In this document: in pieces, positions 1-39,609 of the stretch
Numbering within the stretch: position 1 is the first letter of the stretch
Layout of the letters: the number at the start of each line of letters is the position of its first letter
Origin: a virus
IMG/VR virus record: IMGVR_UViG_3300044956_001544
Location: 1-39,609 of that record
Reading direction: 5' to 3' (one strand)
DNA: 39,609 nt
Notes under the pieces: generated by a model
What the model was told of the DNA's origin: nothing
Seen by the model: only the letters and a program-made list of their open reading frames with translations
Database searches by the model: none
Made by a program: the position numbers and the translations under genes

Positions 1-1089
1 CTATGCCCCACGCGGCCTCGGCACTGCTGCTGTCACCCTGGCGCTGTTCACGCCGTCAAGGCCAGCGTACCGGTCTGTCGTCCTGGCATCCCTATGCCCA
101 AGCAAGTCGCGCACCTCTGCCAGATCGTTGCCCCCCGTGAGCCACCAGGACGCCACCGAGCCGCGGAGGTCATGGATGCGAAGTGGCCCAACCCCAGCAT
201 CCTCGACAGCCTTGCGCCAGACGGGCGCCCAGTTCGTGTTCCGCAGGACACTGCCGCGCTTGGTTGTCACTAGCAGGGGGCCTGGGCAGGTGCCGACGGA
301 GTGTTCCAGCCCGCAGGTCTGGCCCTCATGGGGCAGGTCTCGGAGAGTCTCGAGGAGCCAGTCGGGCACTGGCACGACCCGCAATCTCTTGCCCTTGGGG
401 TAGGGCATCATCACACCCACGCGCTCCGAGAAGGTCTCAGCGACCGTCAGCATTCCCGTTTCGAAGTTGACGCGCGCGCGATGAAGTCCAGCGAGCTCGC
501 CCCAGCGCAGGCCGGTCGAGGCAAGCATCTTGACGATGAGCTGGTCCCTCGGTGTCGGCAGTTGCTCGAGTAGTGCGTCGTAACCTTCGGGGCTCAGCCG
601 CTGATGCTTAGGCGGCGGCTCGGGCAACTTCTTCATGCCGGTCAGCGGGTTGATTTCGATAACCTCCGCGTCGACTGCCGCAGTCAGCGAGACGCTCAGA
701 AGGGCGACCGCTCGATTGATCGTCGAGTTCGAGACGCCGGCGTCGCGCATCTCGCCGCGCCACACCTTCACTTCGTGGCGGGTTATCGCGCCCAGCGGCC
801 AGTCACGCCATTTCGGCATGACATGGGTGTCGCGACGCCCCTTGTCTGTTGCCAGCGTGGCCTTTTCGACATCTCGCGACGGCCACCACGACTCACACCA
901 GGCTCCCCAGGTCTTCTTGGACGCGGCGGGGTCGCGCCACTCGAGTCGACGCGCCTTTGCCTCTGCTGCTGCGGCTTCGCGCTTGGCCTCCGCCTTGTGC
1001 GTGAATGTGCCCGCGCTGCGGCGCCGATTCCGGGCGTCCCTGTAGAGCCCGCGGTACTTCCCACTCGGCAGCTTCTCGGCCCATGCCAT
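1..1089 (-). CDS. int: Tyrosine recombinase integrase
   Basis: Phage integrase (362 aa) that would catalyse site-specific insertion and, with an excisionase, excision. An N-terminal arm-binding region (about 1-60; MAWAEKLPSGKYRG start), a SAM-like core-binding domain (about 65-150) and a C-terminal catalytic domain are visible. The catalytic set is complete: R195 (TGLRWGEL), a lysine in the PKGKR beta-hairpin near 232-234, H306-x-x-R309 (HDLR), H332 (LLGHRD) and nucleophile Y341. I chose ATG at 1089 over an in-frame ATG at 1113 because the MAWAEKLPSG opening is the one I recognise for this family and because a TANNNT box lies exactly six bases upstream. The gene ends at the window edge, so any adjacent att site lies outside. 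Confidence 0.95.
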   Translation of the reverse strand: MAWAEKLPSGKYRGLYRDARNRRRSAGTFTHKAEAKREAAAAEAKARRLEWRDPAASKKTWGAWCESWWPSRDVEKATLATDKGRRDTHVMPKWRDWPLGAITRHEVKVWRGEMRDAGVSNSTINRAVALLSVSLTAAVDAEVIEINPLTGMKKLPEPPPKHQRLSPEGYDALLEQLPTPRDQLIVKMLASTGLRWGELAGLHRARVNFETGMLTVAETFSERVGVMMPYPKGKRLRVVPVPDWLLETLRDLPHEGQTCGLEHSVGTCPGPLLVTTKRGSVLRNTNWAPVWRKAVEDAGVGPLRIHDLRGSVASWWLTGGNDLAEVRDLLGHRDARTTDRYAGLDGVNSARVTAAVPRPRGA

Positions 1090-1095
1090 GCACCA

Positions 1096-1101
1096 ACGGT
1101 A
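1096..1101 (-). promoter_or_regulatory. Candidate leaderless -10 box of the integrase gene
   Basis: On the reverse strand TACCGT is followed by exactly six bases and then the ATG at 1089. This fits the TANNNT -10 element of actinobacterial leaderless transcripts, where the start codon is the first transcribed base. No Shine-Dalgarno sequence is evident. A TGACA-N5-TGTCA inverted repeat (1113-1127) lies just upstream and could bind a regulator. No convincing -35 was found. Confidence 0.5.
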
Positions 1102-1224
1102 TCGCTGCCCCATGACAGAGAGTGTCAGACGCGCCTGCTTGTATCAGAGAACCTTGTTCACGACGCCGACCTCCCGCGTGTCGGCGTGTCGCACAAAGCG
1201 CGGGCGGAGATTGGACCTCAAGGA

Positions 1225-1371
1225 ATGCGGGTCTTCGACGTTGAGAATCTTGGATACTCGGCGGCGATCGTGACCATCTGCGGGGAACGGATCCTCTTGA
1301 TGGACGTCGCCATGAACCAGGACGAGAGAGTCAGCGCCATGCTTGACGCGATGGCCGACCTAGATCACTGA
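1225..1371 (+). CDS. Possible small protein between integrase and repressor genes
   Basis: A 48-residue reading frame starting MRVFDVENLG and ending ADLDH fills the gap between the leftward integrase and the leftward repressor. It has protein-like alternation of hydrophobic and charged residues and overlaps the repressor end by seven bases tail to tail. AAGGA lies too close to the ATG to be a good ribosome site; an in-frame GTG at 1186 would give 61 residues. No family recognised. The frame stays open far upstream through the antisense of the integrase, so chance is possible. Confidence 0.3.
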   Translation: MRVFDVENLGYSAAIVTICGERILLMDVAMNQDERVSAMLDAMADLDH

Positions 1372-1847
1372 TTGGGCTGCTCCGTGTCTTCCTCGCGGAA
1401 GACCGGAGCGTCGGCCGGATTGAACGGGCTCGGCGGAACGTCCTCCGCCGTCAATGTCTTCTGAGCTGGCGTGCCACTGCCTGGACCTTCTTTCTCGTGC
1501 GCGTCGAGGATTGCATTGACAACTCCGAGCACTACGCGCCGCTCTTCCTTGCTGAGTCTGTCGGCTCGGCTCGGGAGTTTGAACGGTTTGAGCCGCGGCC
1601 TCTTGCCGGCGGCTTCGAGCACGTCCTCGACGGGCTTTCCCGACATCAAAGCGATGGCGTCAGCCGCCCGGTCGCCGATGTTGGTGTGGCCTTCATTGAG
1701 GACGCGCCGAATGAGCTCGTAGCTGACGATCGGCTGGCCGTCGACGTGCGCGAACTCCTGCCACGCAGCATGAGGCGTCAGGATTTCTCCGCGCTTCTTG
1801 CTGCGCTCAGCGAGTCCCCGCGTCAGCAGGTCGGCCAGATCGGTCAT
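1365..1847 (-). CDS. Putative phage immunity repressor (helix-turn-helix)
   Basis: A 160-residue protein in the classical position for a repressor: leftward, divergent from a Cro-like gene across an operator-bearing gap. The N-terminal half (about 20-85) looks like a small helical DNA-binding domain, with the segment SYELIRRVLNEG in a typical recognition-helix context, followed by GDRAADAIALMSGKPVEDVLEAAG, the common tail of XRE/Cro domains. The C-terminal half is charged, then proline-rich and probably disordered (ends EDTEQPNQ). No LexA-like Ser/Lys protease motif was seen. Start chosen at ATG 1847 (MTDLADLL); a GTG at 1856 is in frame. Role inferred from position and fold. Confidence 0.7.
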   Translation of the reverse strand: MTDLADLLTRGLAERSKKRGEILTPHAAWQEFAHVDGQPIVSYELIRRVLNEGHTNIGDRAADAIALMSGKPVEDVLEAAGKRPRLKPFKLPSRADRLSKEERRVVLGVVNAILDAHEKEGPGSGTPAQKTLTAEDVPPSPFNPADAPVFREEDTEQPNQ

Positions 1848-1877
1848 GGCGATCACTCTCGGGGCGAGTTGGAAGGT

Positions 1878-24504: not shown

Positions 24505-25020
24505 ATGACAATCTCCATCCCCGAGAGCGTGCAGGCCGAAGGAAACGTGAAGGTGGTGTTCGTCCCGACCCTGACGAGCACGGCCACGCCGTCCGCCGCG
24601 CAGCTCAACGCCGGCACCGACATCTCGTGCTACCTGATGCCCGACTGGGACGGCGCGACCGGCACGCAGAACACGGGCGAGTCCCGCCGCTTCTGCTCGC
24701 GCCAGACGTTCCAGCGGATGGGCCGCGAGCAGTGGTCGATCGCGCCGCTGTCCTACACCTACGACCCGCAGAACGCGGGCGGAGACGCGAACGCCGTCTA
24801 CGACGCGCTGGCACAGGGCAACGAGGGCTACCTCGTGTTCGGCTACGGCATCGAGCCGGCTGTCGACTTCGCTGCCGGCGACAAGGTCGACATCTACCCG
24901 GTCGAGGCTGGCCTCCAGTCCAAGGCTGCGCGCGGCACCGACGAGTTCGCGCCCCTGACCGTCACGCAGACGCTCGGCGTCATCGGCCCCCGGGTCGAGG
25001 ACGCCACCGTGGCTGCCTGA
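24505..25020 (+). CDS. Major tail protein (tail tube)
   Basis: A 171-residue beta-rich protein that would polymerise into the tail tube. VKVVFVPTLTST, ISCYLMPDWDGATGTQNTGE, RFCSRQTFQRMGREQWSIAP and EGYLVFGYGIEP match the actinophage tube family. It is followed by a very strong hairpin and then by the frameshifting chaperone genes, the standard order. Confidence 0.88.
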   Translation: MTISIPESVQAEGNVKVVFVPTLTSTATPSAAQLNAGTDISCYLMPDWDGATGTQNTGESRRFCSRQTFQRMGREQWSIAPLSYTYDPQNAGGDANAVYDALAQGNEGYLVFGYGIEPAVDFAAGDKVDIYPVEAGLQSKAARGTDEFAPLTVTQTLGVIGPRVEDATVAA

Positions 25021-25091: not shown

Positions 25092-25652
25092 ATGACCACT
25101 CACCGCCGCAGCATCACGGTCGACCTGTTCCCCGGCGAGTACGAGCAACAGCTCGTCAGCCTCATGCAGGAGGCCGAAGACGCGTTGCGCCGCGAGGTGA
25201 TGGCTGGTGGCCTCCGCTTCGGGCAGAAGTCGGCAGCAGCGAAGGCGGCCGAAGCGTTCGACGCCCTCCGTGACGCGCCCCCTGAGCCGCTTCACTCGGT
25301 TCGCGTGTGGCAGGTCGGCTACCTGGACTGGGACGACCTCGTCGAGCAGCACCCAGCGCGCAAGGACAACCCGACGGACGCCCTCCACGGCGTCAACATG
25401 AACACGTTCCCGCGCGACCTACTCCACCTGGCGCTCGTGGACCCGTCGGACGCCGCCGACCTTGCCGACCGGATCAAGGCCGGCAAGAAGATGCTGCGTG
25501 ACCTGTCCCCGTCGCGGGAGCACTACCTCAAGCTCGAGGCCGCCGCCTGGAGCGTCAACAACGAGGCGCTGAACCTCCCAAAAGAGTCGCTCGCCTCGCT
25601 GCTGACCCAGAAGCGAGGCGACGACTCCGAGCCGCAGCACGAGCCGGGGTGA
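25092..25652 (+). CDS. Tail assembly chaperone, upstream (G-like) product
   Basis: A 186-residue helical protein (EYEQQLVSLMQEAEDALRRE ... DLADRIKAGKKMLRDL) between the tube and tape measure genes, the position of gpG-type chaperones that coat the tape measure during tail assembly. Near its end lies a slippery CCCAAAA read as C-CCA-AAA, with a hairpin downstream, so a fraction of ribosomes should shift to the -1 frame and make a longer GT-like fusion with the next gene. Confidence 0.88.
   Translation: MTTHRRSITVDLFPGEYEQQLVSLMQEAEDALRREVMAGGLRFGQKSAAAKAAEAFDALRDAPPEPLHSVRVWQVGYLDWDDLVEQHPARKDNPTDALHGVNMNTFPRDLLHLALVDPSDAADLADRIKAGKKMLRDLSPSREHYLKLEAAAWSVNNEALNLPKESLASLLTQKRGDDSEPQHEPG
25577..25621 (+). 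promoter_or_regulatory. Programmed -1 ribosomal frameshift signal
   Basis: The heptamer CCCAAAA (25577-25583) lies in frame as C-CCA-AAA. Seven bases later begins a perfect ten-base stem, TCGCCTCGCT (25591-25600) with AGCGAGGCGA (25612-25621), loop 11. The -1 frame is open from 25583 straight into the downstream chaperone frame. The fusion would have 164 plus 157 residues. Confidence 0.9.
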
Positions 25653-26056
25653 GCCTGCGGGTCTTCGACGGCTGGTCGCCGACCGAGACTCACGAGCACC
25701 GCGACGCCGCGGGCAACCTCACCGGAACGACAATTGTCACCCGCGAGCCCGAGTTCGACGACCGGCTACGCGCCGAGTACCTGGCGCTGGTCGGCTACGA
25801 AGACCGCTGCTGCAAGACCTGCGGCAACTTCAACACGATCATCGAGGACCCCAGCGCCCGCCGACACGTCACCTGGGACGAGCATGGCGGACGGGTCATG
25901 GACGTTCACCACTTCCTGTGCCTGGCCTGCGGGGCGTCGCAGCTGATCGAGCGGGACTTCACCGAGCGTCACTCGAAGAACAAGCCGGCGCCGGGACAGG
26001 CTGCGCCGAGCGACGGGCGGATGATCGTCGCTGCGCCGCTCTCACTCGATGGGTGA
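25649..26056 (+). CDS. Tail assembly chaperone, frameshift (T-like) extension
   Basis: As an independent frame it starts at GTG 25649 (SLRVFDGWSPTETHEHRDAAG) and encodes 135 residues, with CCKTCGNF and CLACGAS forming a zinc ribbon. Its frame continues upstream without stops to the slippery site at 25577-25583, so its main product is probably the C-terminal half of a 321-residue GT-like fusion. Such fusions link the tape measure to tube subunits. Its end overlaps the reverse-strand lipoprotein gene by 15 bases. Confidence 0.82.
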   Translation: MSLRVFDGWSPTETHEHRDAAGNLTGTTIVTREPEFDDRLRAEYLALVGYEDRCCKTCGNFNTIIEDPSARRHVTWDEHGGRVMDVHHFLCLACGASQLIERDFTERHSKNKPAPGQAAPSDGRMIVAAPLSLDG

Positions 26057-26425
26057 GCCCACCGTCTGACAGGACTGGGCGAACTGCTCAAACGCTTGAA
26101 GTTCCTGCCTGAACGCATCGGCGCTCGCATCCCCGGGCGCAGCATTGATCTGAGCAGCGTAGGCGTCACGGATCGTAGTTAGCGCCGCGACCGCGCTGGG
26201 CTCGGCGCGATCGATCAGTGCATCAATGTCGCGCATTGCTACGGCGTACTCCTCATCGCTCGTGCGCAGCGAGTTGTCCATTGCGGCGACTTCCGCGCAG
26301 GCGTCTGCAAGCGACAACCGTTTTTCGGTCGCAGGACTAGGCGCTTTCGCCTTCTCCTCGCCATCGCTCGAGCAGCCCCATAGGGCGAGCAAGCAGCCCA
26401 GCACCAGGGCCGTCATCAACTTCAT
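26042..26425 (-). CDS. Lipoprotein, reverse-strand moron in the tail operon
   Basis: A 127-residue protein with a lipoprotein signal: MKLMTALVLGCLLALWGCSS, where LWGC is the lipobox and the second Cys (18) the lipidation site. The mature part is helical (SLADACAEVAAMDNSLRTSD, DRAEPSAVAALTTIRDAYAA) with two further cysteines (near 43 and 119) that could form a disulfide. It would sit on the outer face of the host membrane. It is the only reverse-strand gene inside the late region and has its own -10 box. Superinfection exclusion or host surface change is inferred, not shown. Confidence 0.85.
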   Translation of the reverse strand: MKLMTALVLGCLLALWGCSSDGEEKAKAPSPATEKRLSLADACAEVAAMDNSLRTSDEEYAVAMRDIDALIDRAEPSAVAALTTIRDAYAAQINAAPGDASADAFRQELQAFEQFAQSCQTVGSPIE

Positions 26426-26431
26426 CGCCGC

Positions 26432-26437
26432 AGCCTA
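26432..26437 (-). promoter_or_regulatory. Candidate leaderless -10 box of the lipoprotein gene
   Basis: On the reverse strand TAGGCT is followed by six bases and the ATG at 26425. TAGGCT is a common actinobacterial -10 sequence. No Shine-Dalgarno. Independent expression from the prophage is therefore plausible. Confidence 0.6.
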
Positions 26438-26466: not shown

Positions 26467-29109
26467 GTGGCGGAGCGCAATGCGAAGGTCATCCTCGACG
26501 CCGACGTCTCTCGCTTTAACCGCGCCGTCCTTGGTGCCGCTGCCACGACGCGAGCGTTCACCAAGGAACTGGACACGAGCACCGACCGTGCGGCCAACCT
26601 GACGCAGGGCCTTCTCGCAATCGGTCCCGCACTGGTCCCGATCGCTTCCGCCGCCGTCCCCGCGCTCGCTGGGCTGTCGAACCAGCTTGCGATGACAGCC
26701 GGAGCCGCGGGAGTCGCTGTCCTGGCCTTCTCGGGCGTCGGCGAGGCGCTCAAGGCCGTCAACGAGTTCCAGATCGACCCGACCGCGGCGAACCTCGAGA
26801 AGCTTGAGGAGACGATGGCGTCCCTCGGCCCGGCCGGACGCGACTTCGTGACCTACCTTCAGTCGATCCGCCCCGAGCTGCAACGGCTCCAGGACGCCGC
26901 GCAGGAAGGCATCTTCCCAGGCTTGCAGGTCGGCATCTCCGAGCTGATGACGCAGCTGCCCCAGGCCGAGCGCATCGTCAGTGAGATCGCCGAGGCGCTC
27001 GGCACGCTCGGCGCGGAGGCCGGCACCGCGCTGGCCGGCCCGCGCTGGGAGGAGTTTTTCAACTTCCTCGAAGCCGAGGCAAAGCCAACGCTGCTCGACA
27101 TGGGCCGGACGGTCGGCAACCTCGCCGACGGGTTTGCTCAGCTGTGGATGGCGTTCGCTCCCACGTCGGCGAACTTTTCGGACTCGTTCCTGCGCATGTC
27201 GCGCGAGTTCGCGGGCTGGGCGTCCACGGTCGATCAGACGCAGGGCTTCCAGGACTTCCTGGCCTACCTCGATCGTGTCGGCCCGAAGGTCTGGGAGACG
27301 CTCGGCGCACTCGGCAACGCTCTGCTCCAGGTGGCCGAGGCAGCCGCTCCCGTGGGCGAGGCCGCGCTGCCGATCATCGAGTTCCTGGCCGACTCTGTTG
27401 CCGCGATCGCCGACTCCGACGTCGGCCCCGTGCTGATCGGCGTCGCCGCAGGAATCTCGGCCATCTCAAGGGCCGTGATGCTCTACAACGTTGCGCAGGG
27501 AGGCGCGCTCGCAAGCCTGCTGGGCGGCACGGCCGTCGGTGGCGCCGCCCGCAGCGCACGAGACCTCCGGGGCGCCACGTCCGCCTACCTGGACTTCGGC
27601 GCCGCGCTCGGTGCCGCTGGCCCGCAGGTCGGAGCGTTCGCCACGACGACCGAGCGGCTGCGCGCCTCGCTCGGTGGCGTGGGACGGCTGACCGCGGGGC
27701 TGGGCGCCCTGGCGTTCGCTGCGTCCGACCTGGACGACAACCTCGGCCTGGCGAACACCGCCATGTTCACGCTCGCCGGCGCGGCTCTCGGTCCCTGGGG
27801 CGCGGCTGCCGGCGCCGCCATCGGCATCACTCGCGATCTCGCGGCATCCACCGACGGACTTTCGACCGCGCTCGACAACGCTAATCGCGCCGCGGACGGT
27901 GGAACGATCGAGCAGCGCCGTGCCGCGATGGAGGCGCTGCGCGAGGAGGTCGAGAAGGCTCAGGCTGGCGAGGCTGGATTCGGCCAGCGGATCGCGGACT
28001 GGGCCGAGAGCGCGAGCCCCGCCATCCCGTTCGTCACTGGCCTGGCGGCCGGCGTCGACCGCTTCACGAAGTCCTCCAGCGAGGCCGCGAGCGAGCTCAC
28101 CGAGCTGGAGAAGCAGCACGCCGCGGCTGAGGATGCCGCGCAGGAGCAAGCGTTTGAAGAGGCCGGCCTCGAGACGGCGATGTTCGGCGCTTCCGACGCT
28201 GCCCGCGATCAGGCCGAAGCGCTTCTCGAGAGCGCCGAAGCGATGAACGCCAAGAGGGACGCGACTCTCGAGTCCCTGGACGCAGAGCTCGCCTACGAAG
28301 CCGCCATCGACGACGCCGCGAAGGCCGCTCGAGAAGGCAGAGACGGCATCGATAAGGACACAGCAGCCGGACGCGAAAATCGCGCACTGCTGTACGACTT
28401 GGCCGCCGCTTGGAACAACCTCACTCCCGCACAGCAGGCCGCGGCGGGTGAGGCCGAGCGAGCCCGAAAGTCGTTTATCGACAGCGCTATTGGCATGGGA
28501 GCGTCGAAGCGGCAGGCGCAAGACCTTGCCGACCAACTCCTCGACATCCCGCCTGCCGTCGAGACCAAGGTGGAGACGCCAGGCGCCACGAAGGCTGTCG
28601 AGGTGCTGAAGGCCCTCCAGCGGGCCATCAATAACATCAGTCCGTTCAAGGACGTCACGATCCGGACGACGCGTGAGAACGTCACGAAGAACATCAAGGT
28701 CGAAGGCGGCACGCAGGTCGCGATGGCCGATGGTGGGCTCGTCCGGGGCCCGGGCGGGCCGCGCGACGACGTGATCCCGGCACTGCTCTCCAATGGAGAG
28801 TACGTCGTGAACGCCGCGGCCACGGCGAGGAATCTGCCGTTGCTGGAGCGCCTGAATGCTCAGCGCTTCGCCGACGGCGGGCTAGCCAGCCGACGTGCGG
28901 ACGTTCTCGCCAGCGCGCGGCCGGTGTCGGTGAGGACGAGCACAACCGTCAGCCTCGCCGACGCTGAACTGAGTGCGTCCATCGCCGGCGCGAAGATCGG
29001 CGTCGACAAGAACGGCCTGCTCGGCTTTATCGACGGCCGCATCGAGCTCCACGCCCAGTCCGACGCCGCCTATTCGTCGGCCAGCAATCGAGCAGGAGGT
29101 CGCCGATGA
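26467..29109 (+). CDS. Tape measure protein
   Basis: An 880-residue tape measure, the longest gene here, setting tail length (about 130 nm by the usual 0.15 nm per residue rule). It has hydrophobic segments near 45-100 and 270-460 and a coiled, alanine-rich body. The C-terminal signature MADGGLVRGPGGPRDDVIPA then LSNGEYVVNAAATARNLPLL, which I recognise from actinophage tapes, is present at about 750-785. No lytic domain is fused. GTG 26467 follows GGGAGG by five bases. Confidence 0.95.
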   Translation: MAERNAKVILDADVSRFNRAVLGAAATTRAFTKELDTSTDRAANLTQGLLAIGPALVPIASAAVPALAGLSNQLAMTAGAAGVAVLAFSGVGEALKAVNEFQIDPTAANLEKLEETMASLGPAGRDFVTYLQSIRPELQRLQDAAQEGIFPGLQVGISELMTQLPQAERIVSEIAEALGTLGAEAGTALAGPRWEEFFNFLEAEAKPTLLDMGRTVGNLADGFAQLWMAFAPTSANFSDSFLRMSREFAGWASTVDQTQGFQDFLAYLDRVGPKVWETLGALGNALLQVAEAAAPVGEAALPIIEFLADSVAAIADSDVGPVLIGVAAGISAISRAVMLYNVAQGGALASLLGGTAVGGAARSARDLRGATSAYLDFGAALGAAGPQVGAFATTTERLRASLGGVGRLTAGLGALAFAASDLDDNLGLANTAMFTLAGAALGPWGAAAGAAIGITRDLAASTDGLSTALDNANRAADGGTIEQRRAAMEALREEVEKAQAGEAGFGQRIADWAESASPAIPFVTGLAAGVDRFTKSSSEAASELTELEKQHAAAEDAAQEQAFEEAGLETAMFGASDAARDQAEALLESAEAMNAKRDATLESLDAELAYEAAIDDAAKAAREGRDGIDKDTAAGRENRALLYDLAAAWNNLTPAQQAAAGEAERARKSFIDSAIGMGASKRQAQDLADQLLDIPPAVETKVETPGATKAVEVLKALQRAINNISPFKDVTIRTTRENVTKNIKVEGGTQVAMADGGLVRGPGGPRDDVIPALLSNGEYVVNAAATARNLPLLERLNAQRFADGGLASRRADVLASARPVSVRTSTTVSLADAELSASIAGAKIGVDKNGLLGFIDGRIELHAQSDAAYSSASNRAGGRR

Positions 29110-34709: not shown

Positions 34710-36215
34710 GTGACCCGACGCACGCCCGATCAGTACGACTGGGCCAAGCAGGAGTTCGACGAGCGCCTGCTGACGAAGCACTTCACCCGCGGGCGTCGGT
34801 CCAAGATCGGGTTCGTCGTCGTCCACCACTCCACGATCGTCGGCAAGGGTGACGGGCGAGCCAACGCGACCATGTACGCGGTCTGGCAGGAGCGTGAGGC
34901 GTCCGCGCACTACGGCGTGGACGGCGACTACGTGTGCCAGTTCGTCTGGGACCGCGACGCCGCCTGGGCGACCGGCAACAGCAACGGCAACCACGCCGGC
35001 ATCTCCATCGAGCACGCCAACGCCACGGCCGCCCCGAAGTGGACGATCAGCGAGAAGACCTGGAAGAACGGCGCGCGACTGGCCGGGCTGCTGCACGTCA
35101 CCCACAAGCTCGGCCGCCCCGTCTCGGGCAAGACGCTGCGCAAGCATTCCTCGTTCACGTCGACCGCATGCCCTGGCCCGTACATGGACTCGATCTGGGC
35201 CAAGTACGTCGCGGAGGCGCAGCGGGTCTACGACGAGGCCACGAAGCCGACCCCGACCACTCCGGCCCCGTCGAAGCCGACCGAGAAGCCGATCACCGGC
35301 ACCACGTACACGGTCGTCAAGGGCGACACCCTGGCCTCGATCGCACGACGCGCCGGCAAGTCCGTCGCCGAGCTGACCGCCTGGAACAAGCTCAAGGACC
35401 CGGCGCGCATCGAGGTTGGTCAGAAACTGGTCCTGACGAAGCCGAAGCCCACCGTCGCGCCGTTCCGGGTCATGTCCTGGAACCTCAAGAGCCCGACACT
35501 GACAGCGCCGATCTCGTGGGCGATCCGTCGCGGTCGGCAGGTCGCTGAGATCGCACGCCAGCAGCCGAGCGTCCTGCTGCTTCAGGAAGCCGGCAGTCCC
35601 AAGCACGTCAAGTGGTACGACGCCGCCCTGCGCAAGGCTCTCGACCTGGTGAACGCGCGAGCCGTCGACTCCAAGGGCTCAGGCAAGTGGCGGGCGATCT
35701 ACTACGACCCCGCCGTCTGGGAACGGGTCACTGCGGGGCTGTACAACCTTCCGGCGTCGACGCTGTACAAGGGCGACCAGAAGCCGATGGTGTGGGCGGT
35801 CCTGCGCCATCGTCAGACCGGTGACCGGTGGCTGTTCTCGTCCTTCCACCTCGAGAACGACGCGGCTGCCGACCATCACCGTGTCGCTCAGGCGCTCGCT
35901 GTGGCGGAGCACCTGAAGAAACTCGCCGCTTCCTACGACGTCGGCACCGGTCGCACGGTCGCGGGCGGTGACACGAACAGCAACTCCTGGGTGCGCGATC
36001 GAGTCCACGCGGCGACCAGCCTGCGTGACGCGTTCGACCTCGCGCAGAAGACCGCCGGCGAGTCGTGGGCCTCGCACAACGCGTGGAAGGACGCGCGCAA
36101 GGGCGCTCGGATCGACCTGATCCTCACCGACGCGCGGACGGTGCTCGCTGCCTCCCAGGCGTCCACACCGAAGGCCGCCGACCACAATCCGCAATCCGCG
36201 TACATCCAGCCCTGA
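34710..36215 (+). CDS. Endolysin: amidase, LysM and DNase I-like (EEP) fusion
   Basis: A 501-residue three-domain protein. Residues 30-175 are an N-acetylmuramoyl-L-alanine amidase (Amidase_2): zinc ligands H39, H146, C154 (HSSFTSTAC) and the AHYGVD motif with Y68. Residues 199-243 are one LysM wall-binding repeat (TYTVVKGDTLASIARRAGKS). Residues 251-501 are an endonuclease/exonuclease/phosphatase domain with all motifs: N258 (SWNLK), E293 (LQEAG), H380 (SSFHL), D421 and N423 (GGDTNSN), D469 and D491-H492 (ADHNP). The amidase cuts the wall at lysis; the third domain's substrate is unknown (DNA or an envelope phosphodiester). GTG follows AGGAGG by five bases. Confidence 0.9.
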   Translation: MTRRTPDQYDWAKQEFDERLLTKHFTRGRRSKIGFVVVHHSTIVGKGDGRANATMYAVWQEREASAHYGVDGDYVCQFVWDRDAAWATGNSNGNHAGISIEHANATAAPKWTISEKTWKNGARLAGLLHVTHKLGRPVSGKTLRKHSSFTSTACPGPYMDSIWAKYVAEAQRVYDEATKPTPTTPAPSKPTEKPITGTTYTVVKGDTLASIARRAGKSVAELTAWNKLKDPARIEVGQKLVLTKPKPTVAPFRVMSWNLKSPTLTAPISWAIRRGRQVAEIARQQPSVLLLQEAGSPKHVKWYDAALRKALDLVNARAVDSKGSGKWRAIYYDPAVWERVTAGLYNLPASTLYKGDQKPMVWAVLRHRQTGDRWLFSSFHLENDAAADHHRVAQALAVAEHLKKLAASYDVGTGRTVAGGDTNSNSWVRDRVHAATSLRDAFDLAQKTAGESWASHNAWKDARKGARIDLILTDARTVLAASQASTPKAADHNPQSAYIQP

Positions 36216-37634: not shown

Positions 37635-38891
37635 ATGGGAATCCTCGACGCACCCGGCTACAGCCGCGGCCAGGCCGACTCGAAGTTCGACCGCATCGAC
37701 CCTCGCCTCGCCGCGTTCCAGCGCAAGATCAAGATGGGCGTGCAGGACGGCGTCATCCTCTGCAACGGCGACTCGACCACCAGCGGCGACACCCGCCCGA
37801 TCCGGCTGCTATGCGACAAGTTCGCCGCGCAGTACCCGACCCACACGATCCTCTACTACGTCTGGGTCGACGCTTCGAAGACCTGGGCCGCGCCCGTCAC
37901 GGTGCAGACCGGGACTGGCTCCCGGACGATCCACGTCTACAACCAGTCCATCTCTGGGCAGGTCATCGGCTACGCCTTCAATTTCCTGGCGCAGATCCTC
38001 GCGGGCAACCTCACGCCCGACGTCATCATCTGGAACTACGGCCACAACAGCCCCCAGGACTACGGCAACTATCGGGCGCTCGTCGCGCAGGCAATCACCG
38101 ACTATCGAGCGTCGCTCCCCGCCGCAGCGCACGTCATCATCGCCCAGAACCCACAGGCCGTAGCCAACGGCGCCGCGTACACGGGCGACCAGGAGAAGCA
38201 GCGAGCGAACTACGACTACGCCGCCGCCGAGGGGCACACGGTCGTCGACGTCAACGCCGACTTCATCGACTACGGCAACTACGCCGCCGACCTCCTCCAG
38301 GTCGACGGCCTGCACCCCAACGACGCCGGCAACCAGCGCTTCCGGGACCTCATCTGGGAGGCTCTGCGGCCCCGGAAGGTTCGGGCGTCCGGTGGCGCCG
38401 CGCCCGTTGGTGTCGACCGGGTCTGGATTCCGGCGAAGGACTTCGACGGCGCCGACGGAACTCCCAACTACGCGGCGATGTTCCTCGGTCTCGGCGCTTG
38501 GAACCTCGACCAGAGCACCGAGGAGTCCATCGTCTGCGTCGCGGACTGGCCCAACTGGTCACTAGTCGACATCGACATCTGGACCTATACCGCTACGACG
38601 CCCGCGACGGGCGCCCGCGACAGCCGGATCACGTTCCAGTTCGCCTACCTCGGCAGCGGGCGCGGCGGATGGGGCGGCGGCGCCCTGGCCTCGGCCTGGA
38701 CCGACCTTGCCACCGTCACGACGTCGCACTCGACCACCTCGCGTGCCCCGACCGTCATCAAGGCCGCATCGCGTACCGGACTCGGCAGCCGGCCGATCGC
38801 GATCAAGGTGGTCCGCAAGGCAGCCGACGCCGCTGACACGCTCCCGCAGGATCTGCAGCTGGCCGGCGTGATGATCCACAAGATGGCCTGA
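37635..38891 (+). CDS. SGNH/GDSL-type esterase tail protein
   Basis: A 418-residue protein with an N-terminal SGNH hydrolase (about 37-245): block I CNGDSTTSGD (Ser47), block II SGQVIG (Gly108), block III WNYGHNS (Asn138), block V DGLHPNDAG (Asp224, His227). These residues form the esterase triad and oxyanion hole. The C-terminal 170 residues are a beta-rich carbohydrate-module-like domain. Such tail enzymes deacetylate or trim surface polymers during adsorption; the host polymer here is unknown. Confidence 0.85.
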   Translation: MGILDAPGYSRGQADSKFDRIDPRLAAFQRKIKMGVQDGVILCNGDSTTSGDTRPIRLLCDKFAAQYPTHTILYYVWVDASKTWAAPVTVQTGTGSRTIHVYNQSISGQVIGYAFNFLAQILAGNLTPDVIIWNYGHNSPQDYGNYRALVAQAITDYRASLPAAAHVIIAQNPQAVANGAAYTGDQEKQRANYDYAAAEGHTVVDVNADFIDYGNYAADLLQVDGLHPNDAGNQRFRDLIWEALRPRKVRASGGAAPVGVDRVWIPAKDFDGADGTPNYAAMFLGLGAWNLDQSTEESIVCVADWPNWSLVDIDIWTYTATTPATGARDSRITFQFAYLGSGRGGWGGGALASAWTDLATVTTSHSTTSRAPTVIKAASRTGLGSRPIAIKVVRKAADAADTLPQDLQLAGVMIHKMA

Positions 38892-38910: not shown

Positions 38911-39609
38911 TCAACGAGCGAGGAGCCACCCGCCGACGCCTGTGACGGGCGTCTTGAGCGCGAACTTCACGTGGCCCTGGGCTCGGAAGCGGTACCAGCC
39001 GCCGCGCCGTGGCACGCTCATGCTCGCGAGGCTGCTCGCCGAGGGCTCGCCCAACGCGGCCAGCGCCGCGTCCGCCATGGCGAGATGGCCTGTGGACGTC
39101 GGGTGGATGCGGTCGACCCACACCTGCGATCCCGCAAGTCGCGGCTGCTCAACCAGCAGCGCGCCGTGCTCGGCGGCCAGGCGAGCGGTCTCCTGGCGGA
39201 CGCGACGCACTCGGCGGCGCAGCCCCGGGCCGTAGGGCCACAGCGCCCAGCCGTGACGCCCCGCGTCGGCCGACAACTGCATCACCAGCACTCGGTCGGA
39301 TCGCGACGCGACCGCGTGAAGGATTGCGTCGAGGCTGCCGATCGTGTTGTGACGGTAGTGCCGCCACGAGATCGCGTCGTTCGTACCGACGAACACCAGG
39401 GCGACGTCCCACCGCTCGTCGGGCAGGTCATCGAGCAGCCCGGCCACGACGCTCGCTGGCGCGCCTGACTGCGCACGAACCGTGAGGTCCGCCTCGAGGG
39501 CGTCAGCGACCCAGGCAGCCCAGGGGCGCGGCGGCACACCGTCCAGCGCCAAGTCCTGACTGCACGCCGCGGTGATCGAGTCGCCGACGGCGAGGACCCT
39601 ACGCGTCAC
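38911..39609 (-). CDS. SGNH/GDSL hydrolase, possibly host flanking gene
   Basis: A 232-residue SGNH hydrolase: block I AVGDSITAA (Ser11), VGTND (Asn77), and DRIHPTSTG (Asp166, His169). The opening VLAVGDSITAACSQDLALDG is of a bacterial chromosomal type distinct from the phage tail esterase. It is convergent to the phage late operon, with 19 bases between stops. GTG at 39609 coincides with the window end, so an upstream start cannot be excluded. The prophage right end may lie at or before this gene. Confidence 0.8.
   Translation of the reverse strand: MTRRVLAVGDSITAACSQDLALDGVPPRPWAAWVADALEADLTVRAQSGAPASVVAGLLDDLPDERWDVALVFVGTNDAISWRHYRHNTIGSLDAILHAVASRSDRVLVMQLSADAGRHGWALWPYGPGLRRRVRRVRQETARLAAEHGALLVEQPRLAGSQVWVDRIHPTSTGHLAMADAALAALGEPSASSLASMSVPRRGGWYRFRAQGHVKFALKTPVTGVGGWLLAR

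What the first reader, a model, noticed from the sequence alone, without database searches (positions are those of the whole stretch)
26042..26437. Reverse-strand lipoprotein moron inside the tail operon
A lipoprotein gene with its own TAGGCT box is inserted opposite to all neighbours between the tail chaperones and the tape measure. Surface lipoproteins carried by prophages are known to block superinfection (for example TP-J34 Ltp, a lipoprotein gene also expressed from the prophage) or alter the host. No family recognised, so it is a candidate new exclusion factor acting against phages whose tape measure or tail tip meets the membrane.
Basis: partly seen in the sequence, partly recalled or inferred. 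Interest (0 to 1): 0.75.

Follow-up and report, generated by a model that had tools for sequence, protein, structure and literature searches.

The report
Antisense lipoprotein moron beside tape-measure gene
A temperate phage of Nocardioides-type soil bacteria carries, backwards in the middle of its tail genes, a small surface lipoprotein gene with its own switch, and many related prophages use the same spot for different membrane proteins, probably to change or protect the host cell while the phage is dormant.

Summary
Confirmed and extended. Window 26042-26425(-) is a 127-aa lipoprotein gene lying against the late operon, between the presumed tail chaperones and the tape measure protein (TMP). 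Its 'TAGGCT box' (26432-26437, -) sits exactly 6 nt before the ATG, the spacing of a leaderless actinobacterial promoter. All three closest phages (TMP 59-64% identical) and a Pimelobacter simplex prophage (34%) carry a homologue in the same place, strand and promoter layout; an Aeromicrobium phage carries one, also reversed, at another tail-gene junction. A survey of 342 genomes of the family of P. simplex (Nocardioidaceae) gave 48 related TMP loci; 12 have a reverse gene in this junction. All 12 are preceded by TANNNT at 6-8 nt (4 of 584 late-strand genes are) and all 12 encode membrane or lipoproteins (6% of reverse ORFs do), of about seven unrelated kinds. Thus this is a moron slot with exchangeable membrane cargo, not one odd gene. 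Best reading: constitutive expression in the lysogen, acting at the cell surface, most likely superinfection exclusion at DNA entry. E. coli phage HK97 keeps its exclusion moron gp15 in the same junction, but on the late strand. Expression and exclusion were not shown. New lipoprotein family, new variant of a known kind.

The parts
26042..26425 (-). Lipoprotein gene, 127 aa: signal peptide with lipobox Cys18, linker (about 19-36), predicted four-helix bundle (39-121) with conserved Cys43 and Cys119, C-terminal GSP motif
26432..26437 (-). TAGGCT, TANNNT-type -10 element exactly 6 nt before the ATG (predicted leaderless promoter); no recognisable -35
26467..29109 (+). Tape measure protein, 880 aa, right border of the slot
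   Evidence: PHROG tape measure matches to 1.6e-20
25649..26056 (+). Presumed second tail assembly chaperone frame, left border of the slot; 3' end overlaps the lipoprotein gene by 15 bp
   Evidence: position and overlapping frames only; no family match
25092..25652 (+). Presumed first tail assembly chaperone
   Evidence: position only
24505..25020 (+). Tail tube protein
   Evidence: PF25595 1.2e-36, phrog_2491
1..1113 (-). Tyrosine integrase, same strand as the lipoprotein; its in-frame ATG at 1089 also carries a TANNNT box at leaderless distance
   Evidence: PF00589 5.7e-19, phrog_1
1365..1856 (-). Repressor-like gene, same strand as the lipoprotein
   Evidence: phrog_20450 6e-7

Best explanation
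The gene is a moron in a recurrent slot between the tail chaperones and the tape measure gene of Nocardioidaceae temperate phages. A leaderless promoter of host housekeeping type on the antisense strand keeps it on in the lysogen, when the late operon is silent; during lytic growth convergent late transcription should override it (inferred). The product is exported and lipid-anchored outside the membrane as a four-helix bundle, perhaps stapled by a Cys43-Cys119 disulfide (predicted). Most likely it acts there as a superinfection-exclusion factor against incoming siphophages at the DNA-entry step, where tail tip and TMP meet the membrane (inferred by analogy with HK97 gp15 and TP-J34 Ltp). Other lineages use the slot for unrelated membrane proteins, as expected if the cargo turns over under selection by competing phages.
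For: Shown: conserved gene, strand, junction and promoter spacing in several phage records; purifying selection. Unbiased scan of 48 loci x 8 kb, both strands: of 18 reverse ORFs with TANNNT 6-8 nt upstream, 12 lie within 204 bp of the TMP start (P about 1e-14), and all 12 carry TM or lipo signals against 6% background; 4 of 584 late-strand genes have the box. Cargo types differ: lipoprotein, DUF2510+TM (3 above Pfam cutoff), 2TM, 3TM, 4TM. Slot turnover between close TMP N-termini: lipoprotein vs 3TM at 74% identity, lipoprotein vs empty at 74%, 2TM vs empty at 66%. The same promoter class precedes integrases and a repressor in these prophages. DUF2510 cargo has homologues beside integrase and repressor in mycobacteriophages Charlie, Babsiella and Butters, and Butters gp36 is reported expressed from the prophage (PMC7542560). 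HK97 keeps gp15 between chaperones and TMP; gp15 blocks injection and hybrids with other tail tube/TMP genes escape it (PMC10883804).
Against: No expression or phenotype data. No sequence or fold match to any exclusion protein. Homologues also sit as single genes in Nocardioidaceae genomes away from the TMP slot, which fits a host-derived role other than exclusion. No -35 box or terminator was found.
Confidence: 0.55

Rival explanations
1. Lysogenic conversion other than exclusion: the slot carries prophage-expressed membrane and lipoproteins that alter host envelope, signalling or fitness, with no role against phages.
For: Homologues exist as single lipoprotein genes in several Nocardioidaceae genomes, some without visible prophage genes nearby; cargo is diverse.
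Against: The junction beside TMP is favoured over all other junctions in the 7 kb upstream; HK97 fills the same junction with an exclusion gene.
Confidence: 0.28
2. A lytic or virion function (lysis lipoprotein, structural component) that happens to be encoded backwards.
For: Lies in the tail operon; one weak spanin-like PHROG hit to the signal peptide region (E 0.13).
Against: Always antisense to late genes in tail operons, so convergent with late transcription; the lysin gene is elsewhere (34710-36215); the slot is empty in many relatives.
Confidence: 0.07
3. Regulatory antisense RNA: the reverse promoter exists to silence leaky tail-gene expression in the prophage, and the ORF is secondary.
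For: The transcript would run antisense into the chaperone and tail tube genes, with no terminator found.
Against: Coding constraint (dN/dS about 0.17), conserved cysteines, cargo always membrane-directed, and slot often empty.
Confidence: 0.07
4. Spurious ORF on the antisense strand.
For: High-GC DNA yields many antisense ORFs (321 of at least 50 aa on both strands of the window); the codon score is low.
Against: Conservation, lipobox, promoter and selection across divergent phages.
Confidence: 0.01

Closest known systems
HK97 gp15 moron (superinfection exclusion)
   Same: Small membrane-targeted moron in exactly the junction between frameshifted tail chaperones and TMP; blocks DNA injection, and hybrids with HK022 tail tube and TMP genes escape it (PMC10883804).
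   Different: On the late strand; predicted inner-membrane protein rather than lipoprotein; no sequence similarity; Gram-negative host.
TP-J34 Ltp superinfection-exclusion lipoproteins
   Same: Phage lipoprotein of similar size (142 aa) outside the membrane of a Gram-positive, on the strand of the lysogeny genes, transcribed in the prophage and linked to TMP (PMC3952083).
   Different: Ltp lies in the lysogeny module next to integrase; no Ltp-family match in Pfam for our family; ours lies next to TMP.
Mycobacteriophage cluster N and related lysogenic membrane genes (Butters gp36, Charlie gp33, Babsiella gp32)
   Same: DUF2510 membrane proteins homologous to cargo of the Nocardioidaceae slot, antisense to the late genes.
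   Different: They sit beside integrase and repressor, not beside TMP; their own role is unknown (PMC7542560). They are relatives of other slot cargo, not of the lipoprotein.
JBD26 Tab (tail assembly blocker)
   Same: Moron inside the late operon, constitutively expressed from the prophage, linked to TMP (PMC10884400).
   Different: Acts on tail assembly inside the cell and lies between the terminase genes; ours is predicted to be exported.

Membership tests
Phage moron | Extra gene absent from otherwise syntenic relatives | tested here: met
   Slot empty in many relatives, including the Aeromicrobium phage whose TMP N-terminus is 61% identical
Phage moron | Own promoter | tested here: met
   By sequence only: TANNNT 6 nt before ATG, conserved, enriched over 584 late-strand genes
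Phage moron | Own terminator | tested here: inconclusive
   None found by pattern scan
Phage moron | Expressed in the lysogen | not testable with these tools
   No RNA data
Ltp superinfection-exclusion lipoproteins | Lipoprotein signal | tested here: met
   Invariant Cys18 with lipobox in the family
Ltp superinfection-exclusion lipoproteins | Ltp repeat domain | tested here: not met
   No Ltp-family match in Pfam for any of 12 aligned members at E up to 0.1
Ltp superinfection-exclusion lipoproteins | Located in the lysogeny module | tested here: not met
   Gene is about 25 kb from integrase and repressor
Ltp superinfection-exclusion lipoproteins | TMP as target, block of DNA entry | not testable with these tools
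   Needs phage assays
HK97 gp15 exclusion proteins | Position between tail chaperones and TMP | tested here: met
   (chaperones of the window named by position)
HK97 gp15 exclusion proteins | Sequence homology | tested here: not met
   No alignment at E up to 100
HK97 gp15 exclusion proteins | Same strand as late genes | tested here: not met
   Antisense here, sense in HK97

The most novel reading that the evidence does not exclude
The chaperone-TMP junction of Nocardioidaceae phages is a dedicated exchange slot for lysogen-expressed anti-entry proteins: the cargo travels with the adjacent tape measure gene, so that each phage keeps a matched pair of exclusion protein and resistant TMP, and unrelated lipoproteins and membrane proteins are swapped through one conserved antisense leaderless promoter arrangement.
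Probability: 0.3. Interest if true: 0.75.

Novelty: new variant of a known kind. Interest (0 to 1): 0.6.

Why it matters
It turns a single odd gene into a rule that can be tested: in this phage group, a gene lying antisense in front of the tape measure gene is a membrane protein or lipoprotein with a leaderless promoter, probably on in the lysogen. That gives a simple way to find candidate exclusion factors by position, with no homology needed, in bacteria where almost none are known, and points to the tape measure junction as a shared site for such genes in both Gram-negative (HK97) and Gram-positive phages.

Tried and rejected
Pfam, NCBIfam, PHROGs and PADLOC gave only weak chance matches for the lipoprotein; NCBIfam RepC (7e-4) is far below its cutoff (19 of 150 bits). 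tblastn of the lipoproteins against 50,697 phage records found nothing; a direct scan of viral contigs with the window lipoprotein alone also found nothing, and the homologues came through the neighbouring TMP. The first TMP scan of genome contigs failed and the second worked. Foldseek and VIA-align gave only generic four-helix bundles, best Z 8.9, within the range expected for helical bundles. The sigma-70 scan does not see the promoter because no -35 matches. Reverse annotation PIS_008 in Saccharomonospora phage PIS 136 was not pursued; it overlaps a + gene and may be a misannotation. The TMP type is nearly absent from 299 genomes of the order of the Jatrophihabitans genome, so generality beyond Nocardioidaceae was not shown. 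Junctions downstream of the TMP were not surveyed outside the window.

Full report
WHAT IS THERE. The window is a whole IMG/VR virus record of 39,609 bp, 67% GC, temperate by an integrase (1-1113, -) and a repressor-like gene (1365-1856, -), with a late block on the + strand: TerL and portal, tail tube, two presumed chaperone frames, TMP, lysin. Between the second chaperone frame (ends 26056) and TMP (starts 26467) lies one reverse ORF, 26042-26425, 127 aa. It has a signal peptide ending in Cys18 and no recognised family in Pfam, NCBIfam, PHROGs or PADLOC.

CONSERVATION. Three viral contigs with TMPs 59-64% identical carry the homologous reverse ORF in the same place (the L002 and L004 copies are identical in protein). 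Two more distant records (34% TMP identity) carry it too; one of them matches a prophage of Pimelobacter simplex ATCC 6946 (L023). A phage contig in an Aeromicrobium MAG, with an empty chaperone-TMP junction, has the same lipoprotein family in reverse between the presumed tail terminator and the tail tube. The family keeps the lipobox Cys, Cys43 and Cys119 and a C-terminal glycine motif. L014 versus L015 shows 11 synonymous and 6 nonsynonymous codon changes, dN/dS about 0.17. The AlphaFold model from five homologues is a four-helix bundle with pLDDT of at least 90 for 78 residues, with no informative fold relative.

PROMOTER. TAGGCT is followed by exactly 6 nt and the ATG in the window, L002 and L003, TACGCT likewise in L014 and L015, and TAGGGT in the Aeromicrobium copy. 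A -10 element ending 7 nt before the first base of the start codon is the layout of leaderless transcripts, which are common in Actinobacteria (own knowledge). Only 4 of 584 called late-strand genes in the surveyed loci have TANNNT at 6-8 nt. In the same prophages the genes that do have it include several integrases and a repressor-like gene, and in the window an in-frame ATG of the integrase.

THE SLOT. A TMP profile found relatives in 58 of 342 genomes of the family of P. simplex. I fetched 48 loci and scanned both strands over 7 kb upstream of TMP for ORFs of at least 40 aa with the leaderless box. Of 18 reverse hits, 12 lie 31-204 bp before TMP; all 12 have a TM segment or lipoprotein signal, against 86 of 1,549 reverse ORFs in general. 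They fall into about seven kinds: the lipoprotein family; a divergent lipoprotein (L093); DUF2510 plus TM in three loci, above Pfam cutoff; several 2TM types; a 3TM type; a 4TM type; and a 44-aa 1TM ORF that I regard as doubtful (L107). A Jatrophihabitans MAG adds a TM plus zinc-ribbon-like protein. With the viral contigs, 17 of 54 loci are occupied. In the empty loci the second chaperone frame usually runs to within a few bases of TMP. Neighbouring TMPs differ in cargo: N-termini 74% identical with lipoprotein versus 3TM (two prophages of one P. simplex strain), 74% with lipoprotein versus none, 66% with 2TM versus none. So the slot has been filled and emptied repeatedly.

FUNCTION. Shown by sequence: a conserved, selected gene with an export signal and its own antisense promoter box, in an exchange slot. 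Inferred: expression in lysogens. Support comes from the promoter class, the shared strand with integrase and repressor, and homologues of the DUF2510 cargo that lie beside integrase and repressor in mycobacteriophages Charlie, Babsiella and Butters; Butters gp36 is listed among proteins expressed from that prophage, role unknown (PMC7542560). Inferred further: exclusion at DNA entry. The HK97 record shows moron gp15 in the same junction; gp15 is a predicted inner-membrane exclusion protein escaped by hybrids with HK022 tail tube and TMP genes, and TP-J34 Ltp is a lipoprotein whose block is overcome by TMP changes (PMC10883804; PMC3952083). Against this, homologues occur as single genes elsewhere in a few Nocardioidaceae genomes, so another envelope role remains possible.

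LIMITS. No expression or phenotype data exist here; the chaperones are named by position; the gene caller is home-made and misses some short reverse genes, which is why the promoter scan was run independently of it; the search for TM and lipo signals uses simple rules; junctions downstream of TMP in other phages were not surveyed; the host of the window phage is inferred from relatives, not known. A literature search of the open library found no description of this slot, but subscription papers are not covered.

Noticed in passing
window 34710-36215 (+): Lysin-like protein joins Amidase_2, LysM and an endonuclease/exonuclease/phosphatase (PF03372) domain in one chain, an unusual combination.
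   Followed up: no
window 37635-38891 (+) and 38911-39609 (-): Two GDSL/SGNH hydrolase genes end to end, the second on the reverse strand and running off the record; the first matches a tail fibre PHROG.
   Followed up: no
L022 and L023 (Pimelobacter simplex ATCC 6946): One strain carries two prophages with related TMPs and different cargo (3TM, lipoprotein) in the same slot, a natural test pair.
   Followed up: partly
L080 3184-3912 and L099 3056-3787: Reverse-strand genes of about 242 aa, without TM segments and similar to each other, inside the region upstream of TMP in two Nocardioidaceae prophages.
   Followed up: no
L117 1489-1932: A homologue of the lipoprotein with the same TANNNT-6-ATG promoter lies beside an HTH plus metallopeptidase-like gene and a PIN-like gene in a Nocardioidaceae genome, possibly an immunity module.
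   Followed up: partly
L144 7716-7976 (HK97 gp23): HK97 also has a gene annotated as 'reverse moron' between tail genes I and J, a precedent for antisense morons.
   Followed up: no
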